Below are positions 909 through 3,134 of a stretch of 44,294 bases of DNA, piece by piece. The position numbers and the translations under genes are program-made. The stretch covers positions 90,739-135,032 of the forward strand of contig JAJYLD010000002.1 of assembly GCA_021788015.1 (NCBI GenBank), given 5' to 3'. Positions within the stretch are counted from its first letter, which is position 1. Each line of letters opens with the position of its first letter. The DNA comes from a bacterium (GTDB lineage: Bacteria > Patescibacteriota > Patescibacteriia > Patescibacteriales > JAKAJF01). The notes below the pieces were generated by a model. It was given only the letters and a program-made list of their open reading frames with translations, was not told the origin of the DNA and made no database searches.

Positions 909-919
909 CATTAACTGTG

Positions 920-985
920 TGAGCAAGGAAGGACTTGAACCCTCACAAGATCGCTCTCATAGCGACCCGAACGCTATGCCTGCCC
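920..985 (-). pseudogene. tRNA-like element lacking a D arm, anticodon-loop CGG
   Basis: On the minus strand, GGGCAGG (985-979) can pair with CTTGCTC (927-921) as a 7-bp acceptor stem with two G-U pairs, followed by an A at 920. A perfect 7-bp stem (958-978) closes a 7-nt loop TTCGGGT, so the anticodon position would be CGG. A 15-16 nt variable region and a T arm with TTCAAGT follow. No D arm fits between acceptor and anticodon stem, and the element is only 66 nt. It may be a decayed tRNA, the 3' part of a rearranged class II tRNA, or a transcribed tRNA mimic. The sequence just upstream (983-993) repeats the GGTGCGGGG motif that precedes the neighbouring 3' tRNA fragment. Confidence 0.45.
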
Positions 986-998
986 CGCACCAATTTTG

Positions 999-1063
999 TG
1001 GGGATGGAGAGACTTGAACTCTCACGATATTACTACCACATGCGCCCTTGCCCCGCACCAAAA
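999..1063 (-). pseudogene. 3' part of a split or interrupted tRNA-Leu-like gene
   Basis: Reading the minus strand, this begins with TTTTGGTGCGGGG (1063-1051). It continues with CATGT (1042-1038), which can be the 3' side of an anticodon stem, then a class II-like variable region, a T arm GAGAG-TTCAAGT-CTCTC and CATCCCC plus A (1006-999). CATCCCC is the perfect complement of GGGGATG at 1270-1264. No matching 5' acceptor strand exists in the immediate upstream sequence. An intact tRNA-Leu(CAG) lies between this piece and its presumed 5' partner at 1192-1270. Confidence 0.5.
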
Positions 1064-1074
1064 CAGGAAGCCAG

Positions 1075-1157
1075 TGGGCGCGGAGAGACTTGAACTCTCA
1101 CGAGCTTGGCTCATATGCTCCTGAAACATACGCGTATACCAATTCCGCCACGCGCCC
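1075..1157 (-). tRNA. tRNA-Leu(CAG)
   Basis: This is an 83-nt class II tRNA. The acceptor stem GGGCGCG/CGCGCCC is perfect and the discriminator is A. The D arm has the Leu-type GGAATTGGTATAC, the anticodon arm is TATGT-TTCAGGA-GCATA (anticodon CAG), a long variable arm follows, and the T arm is GAGAG/CTCTC. CCA is not encoded. It reads CUG codons. It is intact although the tRNA-like pieces on both sides are not. Confidence 0.95.
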
Positions 1158-1191
1158 AAATTTTATTATTATAATTTGCTAACGTTCGATC

Positions 1192-1270
1192 TTTGGTGCC
1201 GGGGTGAACATGCGTGTCTGCCAATTTCACCCGCCTCGCGTCGATGCGAGTCGAGGCAGGCCACATCCCC
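1192..1270 (-). pseudogene. 5' part of a split or interrupted tRNA-Leu-like gene
   Basis: Minus strand from 1270: GGGGATG acceptor strand, then TGG, then a 31-nt palindromic insert, then a Leu-type D arm GTGAAATTGGCAGACAC and GCATGTT (5' side of an anticodon stem and loop start). The next bases, CCCCGGCACCAAA (1204-1192), are complementary to TTTTGGTGCGGGG at 1063-1051 over 12 base pairs with one bulged G. GGGGATG pairs perfectly with CATCCCC at 1006-1000. The two pieces could therefore fold into one tRNA with a large intervening segment. The 5' end is only 4 nt past the stop codon of the upstream peptide-binding protein gene. Confidence 0.5.
1230..1260. repeat. 31-bp palindromic element inside the tRNA 5' part
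   Basis: The arms CCCGCCTCG (1230-1238) and CGAGGCAGG (1252-1260) pair over 9 bp with one G-U. The element is GC-rich in an AT-rich setting and sits exactly between tRNA positions 9 and 10. Removing it restores a normal TG-GTGAAATTGG junction as in the two intact tRNA-Leu genes of this window. It looks like a REP-type mobile palindrome. Confidence 0.6.
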
Positions 1271-1274
1271 AAAA

Positions 1275-3134
1275 TTACCAGACGATTTTTTTGCCTGTAT
1301 TTACATACCAATCCCCTATATCCGTAAAACGATCGGCGGGTGTTTCGATTTTATTTACGGAAACACCTTTGACCTTTTTGCTTTGCGCATAAATATAATC
1401 GGGGGAATACAAAAATATCGCCGGTTCGTCATTGGTTATATCTTTTTGAAATTTGCAATAATCTTCTTTCCTTGCGTTAATATCGATTGTTGCGCGCCCC
1501 GTTTCCAAAAGCCGATCGACATCTTTATTGGCATATCCGGAAATATTGGCGCCGCTGCCAATTTGGGACGAATCCCAAAACGCATAAAGATCGGGGTCCT
1601 GGCCGACAATCTGACCGTAAAGCAAGGCTTCGAATTCGCGCGGTTGAATAACTTCCGATTGGATTTGCGCGGCTGGCACGGTATCAATAACGGTTTTTAC
1701 TCCGACGCCTTCCCAATCATTTTTTATTTTTTCGATAATTTGCCGGTCGACCGAATCAACGGCGGTTAATTTTACAACCAAAAATCCGTTTTTAAAACGC
1801 CATGCGCCCGGACCGAGCGCCAATTTTTCATCGTCATATTCGTCAACTTTCGAATTATTTTTTTGCGCCTGCTTGATTTTATTTATGTCTCCGTCGGTAA
1901 TTTCAACGATGCTCCATCCCGCGTTGTCCAAAAGTTGCTCCGCCTTGGCTTTGTCAAAATTGTAAACACGGGCATCCTGACAATAAGAAAAATTATCCGG
2001 TAAAATCGGGCCGTTTGCGATGCGAGCATCTCCGCCAAAAACTTGATTTACGATTTCGTTTCGATCGATGGCAAAAGCTAAAGCTTGCCTTACGTTTAAA
2101 TCGGCCAGAGCCTGATTATTTTTTGAATTTAAAAAAATAAGGTTTAACTGCGGTGAAATTAATTTATGGACAGAAACGGCGTTTTTCGCGGCGACCTTGT
2201 CTTTCATTCCTTCCGGGAGACGACTGATCCCGTCAACCGTTTTTTCATTAAAAGCTTGAAGCGCTTCGTCATAACTGCCGAAAATTTTGAATGTCAGGTT
2301 GGTTATGTTCGGTTCACCGTCGTAATAATCTTTATTGGCCGCCAAAGTATAAGTTTTTATCTGACCGTTTTTATCTTTGGTCAAAGACTTGAACTCGTAC
2401 GGACCGGACCCGATCGGTTTTAAGTTTAAATCGGCCAAACTGGCCGAACCGGCCGGTATTTGTGACCAAACGCTTTGCGGCAAAATTCCAAAAGTCATCA
2501 AGTCCAAGAAGGGTGCGTACGGTTCGCTTAGAGTAAATTTGACGGTTTCGTCATCTATTTTTTCAGCGTCCACTCCGGAAAAACTATTCAAAAGAGGAGA
2601 TTTGTAGGCGGGGTCTTTTATGGCTCCGACCGTAAAAACGATGTCGTCGGCCGTAATATTTGTCCCGTTGTCCCACTTCGCATCCGTTCTGATTTTAAAC
2701 GTGTATGTTTTGCCATCCGGACTTATTTCATAACTCCTGGCCAAATCATTAATCAAATTTCCGTTCCCGTCGTATTTTAAAAGTGAAGAGAAAACCAAAT
2801 GAGTTATGTCATTGTCGGTATCGTTGATGCTTGCGTATAAAGGATTAATATATTTGGGCGACCCGACCAAAGCTTCCGTATAATCTCCGCCTTTCTTGGG
2901 AACCGTTTCCAAATGTTTCATATAAAATCCGAATCCCAAAAAAACCAAAGAAAAAATCAAAACTGCAAAGCTCGCGCTCATGAACAAACGCTCTCTCCTG
3001 CTTAAAAATTTATTTAAATATTTTATCTGCCCTAATTTCGGAATTCTTGATTTTGCCAACGAATAAACCAATTTTTTATCAAGATCGGAAAGCAAGCCGG
3101 GATTAAATTTTTTTTCGCGTTTAAAAAACGCCAA
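1275..3134 (-). CDS. Membrane-anchored peptide/solute-binding protein (SBP family 5)
   Basis: The product has 619 residues. A basic N-terminal region is followed by one transmembrane helix at about 50-72 and then an extracytoplasmic SBP_bac_5 domain with family-like segments (PKYINPLYAS near 90, YEISPDGKTYTFKIR, GSGPYEFKS, NVRQALAFAIDR). In this family the protein binds oligopeptides, nickel or other solutes for an ABC transporter. Here a signal anchor replaces a lipobox, and no permease or ATPase gene is adjacent, so it may serve a transporter encoded elsewhere or act alone. It lies downstream of secG. Ligand unknown. Confidence 0.85.
   Translation of the reverse strand: MAFFKREKKFNPGLLSDLDKKLVYSLAKSRIPKLGQIKYLNKFLSRRERLFMSASFAVLIFSLVFLGFGFYMKHLETVPKKGGDYTEALVGSPKYINPLYASINDTDNDITHLVFSSLLKYDGNGNLINDLARSYEISPDGKTYTFKIRTDAKWDNGTNITADDIVFTVGAIKDPAYKSPLLNSFSGVDAEKIDDETVKFTLSEPYAPFLDLMTFGILPQSVWSQIPAGSASLADLNLKPIGSGPYEFKSLTKDKNGQIKTYTLAANKDYYDGEPNITNLTFKIFGSYDEALQAFNEKTVDGISRLPEGMKDKVAAKNAVSVHKLISPQLNLIFLNSKNNQALADLNVRQALAFAIDRNEIVNQVFGGDARIANGPILPDNFSYCQDARVYNFDKAKAEQLLDNAGWSIVEITDGDINKIKQAQKNNSKVDEYDDEKLALGPGAWRFKNGFLVVKLTAVDSVDRQIIEKIKNDWEGVGVKTVIDTVPAAQIQSEVIQPREFEALLYGQIVGQDPDLYAFWDSSQIGSGANISGYANKDVDRLLETGRATIDINARKEDYCKFQKDITNDEPAIFLYSPDYIYAQSKKVKGVSVNKIETPADRFTDIGDWYVNTGKKIVW

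What the first reader, a model, noticed from the sequence alone, without database searches (positions are those of the whole stretch)
999..1270. A tRNA-Leu-like gene split around an intact tRNA-Leu(CAG)
On the minus strand, a 5' part (1270-1192) and a 3' part (1063-999) match each other twice. The acceptor halves GGGGATG (1270-1264) and CATCCCC (1006-1000) are perfectly complementary. The flanks next to the anticodon-stem halves, CCCCGGCACCAAA (1204-1192) and TTTTGGTGCGGGG (1063-1051), pair over 12 bp with one bulged base. The anticodon-stem halves GCATG and CATGT also pair. A complete, ordinary tRNA-Leu(CAG) sits between them. Split tRNA halves with complementary inner flanks are known from some archaea (Nanoarchaeum type), not as a rule in bacteria. 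The alternative is a decayed tRNA broken by insertion of a tRNA-Leu cassette, with the complementary flanks arising from repeat sequence.
Basis: partly seen in the sequence, partly recalled or inferred. Interest (0 to 1): 0.75.

Follow-up and report, generated by a model that had tools for sequence, protein, structure and literature searches.

The report
tRNA gene nested inside broken tRNA
An essential leucine tRNA gene sits between the two halves of an older, broken leucine tRNA gene, apparently delivered there as the cargo of a small palindromic DNA cassette; the same nesting recurs in many tRNA genes of Patescibacteria and I found no published description of it.

Summary
On the minus strand an intact tRNA-Leu(CAG) (1157-1074) lies between the halves of another tRNA-Leu, flanked by inverted arms CCCCGGCACCAAA / TTTTGGTGCGGGG. 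A third, older 3' half (982-918) is preceded by the same arm, so this is a nest of depth three whose outermost 5' half is lost. It is not a split tRNA: the genome encodes all isoacceptors, has no splicing endonuclease, and outer halves decay in orthologous nests elsewhere. The locus (SBP_bac_5 - tRNA-Leu(CAG) - RNase J) is syntenic, and most relatives carry one intact tRNA there. The window is one case of a recurrent arrangement: palindrome-armed tRNA cassettes inserted in tRNA loops, usually of the same isoacceptor. A pattern scan found it across Patescibacteria (37/37 such hits hold a tRNA), and the reversed-pattern control gave 0 in 380 genomes. On a tree the nested state at this one locus needs at least eight changes. 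In a Doudnabacteria pair, the intact inner tRNA of one species is itself broken by a second cassette in the other. Best reading: serial replacement of essential tRNA genes by REP-like mobile palindromes carrying a replacement tRNA. The moving enzyme is unknown.

The parts
1275..3134 (-). SBP_bac_5 gene (oligopeptide-type solute-binding protein), conserved upstream neighbour of the tRNA-Leu(CAG) locus
   Evidence: Pfam PF00496 E=1e-70; synteny
1209..1270 (-). 5' half of the broken (middle) tRNA-Leu, acceptor strand GGGGATG at 1270-1264, interrupted by the hairpin at 1260-1230
   Evidence: resembles 5' half of tRNA-Leu(CAG) in relatives, e.g. L058 and L068
1230..1260 (-). 31-nt palindromic hairpin CCTGCCTCGACTCGCATCGACGCGAGGCGGG inserted in the D arm
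   Evidence: same hairpin in tandem in D loops of tRNA-Glu copies in L088 and inside a repeat in L089
1205..1208 (-). TTCA, probable left tag of the cassette
   Evidence: same tetranucleotide before CCCCG in L043, L119, L289, L295
1192..1204 (-). left arm CCCCGGCACCAAA of the tRNA cassette
1158..1191 (-). leader of the inner tRNA
1074..1157 (-). intact inner tRNA-Leu(CAG), the only tRNA-Leu(CAG) found in the genome
1051..1063 (-). right arm TTTTGGTGCGGGG
1047..1050 (-). CAAG, probable right tag of the cassette
   Evidence: same CAAG after CGGGG in L100, L103, L113, L289
1000..1046 (-). 3' half of the broken (middle) tRNA-Leu, acceptor strand CATCCCC at 1006-1000
   Evidence: 90% identical over 42 nt to an intact tRNA-Leu(CAG)
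983..993 (-). TTGGTGCGGGG, right arm of an older cassette insertion
   Evidence: direct repeat D2; pattern hit
918..982 (-). 3' part of the oldest tRNA-Leu (anticodon-loop region now TTCGGGT); its 5' half is missing
   Evidence: 82% over 51 nt to tRNA-Leu(CAG) of G036/G071; weak Rfam tRNA score 18 bits
1..693 (-). start of RNase J-like gene, conserved downstream neighbour
   Evidence: synteny with the same gene in 8 or more relatives

Best explanation
The locus is the record of repeated replacement of one essential tRNA gene. A short mobile palindromic element (arms CCCCG..C / G..CGGGG with a 4-nt tag) whose loop holds a complete tRNA-Leu(CAG) inserted into a loop of the resident tRNA-Leu. It broke that gene and supplied the substitute at the same moment. 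This happened at least twice here: oldest tRNA (3' half 982-918), then middle tRNA (halves 1270-1209 and 1046-1000), then the intact inner tRNA. Only the innermost tRNA works; the outer halves are dead and decaying. Shown: the anatomy, the syntenic single-tRNA state in relatives, nesting by usually the same isoacceptor at many loci, a before/after pair, repeated changes on a tree, and decay of outer halves. Inferred: that the units move as DNA elements, that hairpin-forming single strands and loops guide insertion (REP-like), and that isoacceptor matching reflects survival (breaking a single-copy essential tRNA is lethal unless the insert replaces it) or homology-guided insertion.
For: Synteny: SBP - tRNA-Leu(CAG) - RNase J with one tRNA in 9 relatives. 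G006, same order: three 5' halves, one intact tRNA, three 3' halves, outermost acceptors GGGCGGG/CTCGCCC, at the same locus. Own genome: further nests or halves at Leu(GAG), Val(TAC), Val(GAC), Leu(CAA), Ser(CGA), Arg(GCG); paired arms of this type seen only at tRNA loci. GTDB scan: 37/37 Patescibacteria hits hold a tRNA between the arms and 25/37 arms pair 4 or more bp beyond the searched bases, against 0/73 for other bacteria. Phylum survey: 16 places in 12 of 380 genomes, reversed control 0. Before/after pair L110 and L130. Tree: at least 8 changes of state at this locus. Outer acceptor halves pair 7/7 wherever both were recovered at nested loci. Decay of outer halves. Same palindromes without a tRNA inside protein genes and a 23S rRNA gene of one Moranbacteria genome.
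Against: No transposase or integrase was tied to the cassettes: Y1 transposase (PF01797) is absent from 4 of 12 cassette-bearing genomes, and its loci carry no such hairpins. Why the cargo so often matches the target isoacceptor is only explained by assumed selection or homology. In L119 the inner and outer tRNA bodies are identical and only the acceptors differ, so local copying or gene conversion also acts. No excised form and no within-population polymorphism was seen.
Confidence: 0.72

Rival explanations
1. Functional split or intron-bearing tRNA: the two halves are transcribed, brought together by the 12-bp arms and ligated, releasing the inner tRNA.
For: The strand folds as tRNA-in-tRNA; acceptor and T stems of the outer tRNA are intact; RtcB ligase is encoded in G000 and G006.
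Against: Same-anticodon intact tRNA present and full tRNA set in the genome; no splicing endonuclease in 8 genomes; RtcB missing in 6 of 8 nest-bearing genomes; breaks in D and T loops in other nests; outer halves lost or overwritten in orthologs L159, L163, L194; a 31-nt hairpin also sits in the D arm.
Confidence: 0.05
2. No mobile element: tandem duplication plus template switching at quasi-palindromes copied the tRNA into its own loop and perfected the arms.
For: Inner and outer tRNAs can be near-identical (G006, L119, L056); arms can continue into the tRNA stem as one perfect palindrome (L103, L098); the 57-nt and 100-nt units in G006 are tandem.
Against: The same arm and tag sequences recur with different tRNAs in distant lineages; inner acceptor stems usually differ from outer ones; the same palindromes without a tRNA lie in protein and 23S rRNA genes.
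Confidence: 0.15
3. Footprints of tRNA-targeting integrative elements (tyrosine recombinase) that lost their genes, leaving a replacement tRNA and displaced halves.
For: Integrases use tRNA loops flanked by stem repeats (established knowledge); one-sided 3' fragments beside intact tRNAs also occur (Ser(CGA) L038, Arg(GCG) L033).
Against: Integration normally rebuilds the target tRNA and does not leave a 5' half outside an intact copy; the inserts are about 110-160 bp with no integrase; no nest in 2.9 million viral contigs (6 hits, all chance).
Confidence: 0.06
4. Assembly artefact of metagenome bins.
For: Several carriers are MAGs and the G006 repeat array spans a contig break.
Against: The window nest lies inside a 199-kb contig with syntenic flanks; nests recur at the same locus in many independent assemblies, some on large contigs.
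Confidence: 0.01

Closest known systems
REP/REPIN elements mobilised by RAYT (Y1 tyrosine) transposases; CGTC-tagged palindromes including Rickettsia RPE (PMC3733652)
   Same: Short GC-rich palindromes tagged by a tetranucleotide at one end, dispersed in genomes and able to sit inside genes; CGTC types have no known dedicated transposase.
   Different: The tag here is TTCA/TTTA/CTTG rather than GTAG or CGTC; the loop can hold a whole tRNA gene; insertion is concentrated in tRNA loops of usually the same isoacceptor; no RAYT link found.
Integrative elements and phages using tRNA genes as attachment sites
   Same: Enter tRNA genes and keep the host supplied with a working tRNA.
   Different: They rebuild the same tRNA across the junction; here the old tRNA is cut in two and a complete second tRNA lies inside it, without an integrase.
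tRNA-Thr(GGU) gene disruption in Caldiarchaeum subterraneum (PMC3293823)
   Same: A tRNA fragment beside an intact tRNA of the same isoacceptor, attributed to a mobile element.
   Different: One archaeal population, 1.8-kb element with a recombinase gene, 5' fragment only, tied to tRNA introns.
Split tRNAs of Nanoarchaeum-type archaea (PMC3218864, PMC4033280)
   Same: Separate tRNA halves with complementary inner flanks.
   Different: No splicing endonuclease, intact tRNA with the same anticodon, decaying halves, breaks in D and T loops as well.
Repetitive hairpin-forming elements of sponge mitochondria (PMC2800124)
   Same: Mobile hairpins between tRNA genes and inside rRNA and protein genes.
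   Different: No tRNA cargo and no nesting in the passages read.

Membership tests
Split (trans-spliced) tRNA | No intact tRNA with the same anticodon elsewhere | tested here: not met
   Intact tRNA-Leu(CAG) lies between the halves; full isoacceptor set
Split (trans-spliced) tRNA | Splicing endonuclease present | tested here: not met
   PF01974 absent in G000 and 7 other nest-bearing genomes; archaeal controls positive
Split (trans-spliced) tRNA | Halves conserved and joined as RNA | tested here: inconclusive
   Not conserved in orthologous nests; joining as RNA was not testable with these tools
Group I intron in tRNA | Group I intron core in the insert | tested here: not met
   No intron family hit in the window at gathering, nor up to E=10 in 700-1500
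Integrative element at tRNA | Integrase or other genes between the halves | tested here: not met
   Insert of about 150 bp holds only leader, tRNA and trailer
Integrative element at tRNA | Target tRNA rebuilt at the junction | tested here: not met
   The old tRNA is left in two halves outside the intact one
REP/REPIN-RAYT elements | Palindrome with a conserved tetranucleotide tag | tested here: met
   TTCA/TTTA/CTTG + CCCCG arms, by inspection of cassette junctions; tag differs from GTAG
REP/REPIN-RAYT elements | Associated Y1 tyrosine transposase | tested here: inconclusive
   PF01797 in 8 of 12 carriers, absent in 4; no such hairpins beside it
REP/REPIN-RAYT elements | Demonstrated mobility | not testable with these tools
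   Only comparative before/after states

The most novel reading that the evidence does not exclude
A new class of minimal mobile element, about 110-160 bp of palindromic arms plus a complete tRNA gene, that homes into tRNA loops, kills the resident gene and replaces it with its own copy. By doing so repeatedly it would drive turnover of essential tRNA genes across Patescibacteria.
Probability: 0.55. Interest if true: 0.88.

Novelty: new variant of a known kind. Interest (0 to 1): 0.78.

Why it matters
Single-copy tRNA genes are thought of as fixed and indispensable. Here they appear to be replaced again and again in place by an insert that breaks the gene and stands in for it. That would be a selfish strategy with little cost to the host, a source of apparent split tRNAs in automated annotation, and a natural record of tRNA turnover in genomes with minimal tRNA sets. 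It also makes a testable question of what enzyme moves palindromes in Patescibacteria.

Tried and rejected
Split tRNA rejected. Phage-borne cassette: viral-contig scan gave 6 chance hits that show no tRNA nest. Y1 transposase as agent: not consistent. A joining test with free trimming on cassette loci was too lenient to be decisive (16 of 50 observed against 16 of 146 with mismatched flanks; many anticodons for the window), so I relied on synteny, alignment and acceptor pairing. The planned download of the whole genome was not available, so tRNAs were located by family search and taken as stretches. Literature searches in the open library found no description of nested tRNAs in these bacteria; subscription papers and preprints were not covered. 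An automated both-halves count stopped with an error after its table; the table is used, the control after it was not computed.

Full report
Observation. On the minus strand the sequence reads GGGGATGTGG - 31-nt hairpin - TGAAATTGGCAGACACGCATG - TTCA - CCCCGGCACCAAA - leader - intact tRNA-Leu(CAG) 1157-1074 - trailer - TTTTGGTGCGGGG - CAAG - GGCGCATGTGG...CATCCCC. The tRNA is called by ARAGORN and Rfam and the inverted arms are recovered by repeat search. Folded as RNA, the stretch forms a cloverleaf whose anticodon arm carries the second tRNA (z = -4.1). A further tRNA-Leu 3' half (982-918) follows directly, preceded by the same arm TTGGTGCGGGG, so the locus is nested three deep with the outermost 5' half missing.

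Not a split tRNA. The tRNA genes located by family search in the 1.13-Mb, 100% complete genome include Leu CAA, CAG, GAG, TAA and TAG. tRNA-splicing endonuclease was found in none of eight nest-bearing genomes; RtcB is in two. Group I intron models do not match.

Synteny gives the ancestral state. SBP_bac_5 - tRNA-Leu(CAG) - RNase J is conserved in the order, and nine relatives carry one ordinary tRNA-Leu(CAG) there, several with acceptor GGGGATG. The broken outer tRNA is therefore the old resident gene and the inner one a substitute. The 5' and 3' halves lie on two contigs that overlap at the repeat, so the count of three is as assembled.

It is general. In the window's own genome, nests or leftover halves also surround Leu(GAG), Val(TAC) and Val(GAC) and lie beside Leu(CAA), Ser(CGA) and Arg(GCG); the outer tRNA of the Val(GAC) nest is too decayed to name with certainty. 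Relatives show Pro(CGG), Ser(TGA), Glu(CTC), Gly(CCC) and others. All 37 hits in records named as Patescibacteria lineages hold a tRNA, and 25 have arms complementary for at least four pairs beyond those searched; of 73 hits in other bacteria 11 hold a tRNA and none has extended arms. In 380 Patescibacteria genomes a looser pattern gave 16 places in 12 genomes against 0 for the reversed pattern; nearly all are nests on inspection, with two doubtful. These are lower bounds, since the arms were fixed.

Turnover at one locus. Around Doudnabacteria the SBP - tRNA-Leu(CAG) locus is single in about 15 genomes and nested in 11. The sample was drawn by similarity to a nested query, so the proportion is not an estimate of frequency. 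Every nested locus has exactly one intact tRNA, Leu(CAG). At nested loci where both outer acceptor halves were recovered by the motif search they pair 7 of 7, although they differ between lineages. In L110 the inner intact tRNA is of GCTCGAG type; in L130 that same tRNA, with the same surrounding arms, is itself broken by a hairpin and a second cassette carrying a GGGTACG-type tRNA-Leu(CAG). On a tree of the neighbouring SBP protein the nested state needs at least eight changes; these may be gains or losses.

Outer halves die. In orthologous nests L159/L166 and L163/L217 one member has lost the outer acceptor pairing or the 5' half, and in L194 the outer 3' half has been overwritten by the inner copy. 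Retained pairing in the window is therefore best read as recency.

Nature of the insert. Junctions have the form [TTCA, TTTA or CTTG] CCCCG-arm ... arm-CGGGG [TGAA, CAAG or CAGG], set into D, anticodon or T loops. Related palindromes without a tRNA sit in D loops of outer tRNAs, and in one Moranbacteria genome inside protein genes and a 23S rRNA gene (identified by eye), four of them with identical 13-nt arms and different 18-nt loops. This resembles tagged REP palindromes (PMC3733652), some of which lack a known transposase. The Y1 transposase is missing from four of twelve carriers and is not flanked by such hairpins, so the agent is open.

Verdict. The mechanism offered here, serial replacement of an essential tRNA gene by palindrome-armed tRNA cassettes, is well supported as history and only inferred as a mobility mechanism.

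Noticed in passing
L232, L236, L238, L239 (G116, Moranbacteria): Four hairpins with identical arms CCCCGCACCACAG / CTGTGGTGCGGGG and different 18-nt loops lie inside apparent protein-coding sequence, flanked by TTCA/TGAA/TTTA-type tags.
   Followed up: partly
L241 (G116): Two palindromic hairpins are inserted in what looks like a 23S rRNA gene.
   Followed up: no
L088 300-1070 (G048:C41): tRNA-Glu-like copies carry tandem arrays of two and four 31-nt hairpins GCCCGCCTCGACTTGCGTCGACGCGAGGCTG in the D loop, beside an intact tRNA-Glu(CTC).
   Followed up: partly
L033 1573-1680; L049 1320-1640: T-loop 3' fragments of Arg(GCG), Ala(CGC) and Leu(CAG) follow the intact genes, each preceded by a mini hairpin such as GGGGCTTCCGCCCC.
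   Followed up: no
L038 205-1918 (G000:C6): Intact tRNA-Ser(CGA) and two 3' fragments of it enclose a region that looks like an FAD-dependent oxidoreductase gene; the far fragment is preceded by CGGGGTGAA.
   Followed up: no
L286, L299, L300: A second arm type, GCAGTTGG-C-[tRNA]-CCAACTGC or similar, extends the acceptor stem of the inner tRNA and pairs with its encoded CCA end.
   Followed up: no
L110 versus L130: The tRNA nest is inverted relative to the SBP gene in L110, perhaps through its inverted arms.
   Followed up: no
L119 (Yanofskybacteria): Inner and outer tRNA-Leu(GAG) bodies are identical while their acceptor stems differ yet each pairs perfectly, suggesting gene conversion that spares the acceptor.
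   Followed up: no
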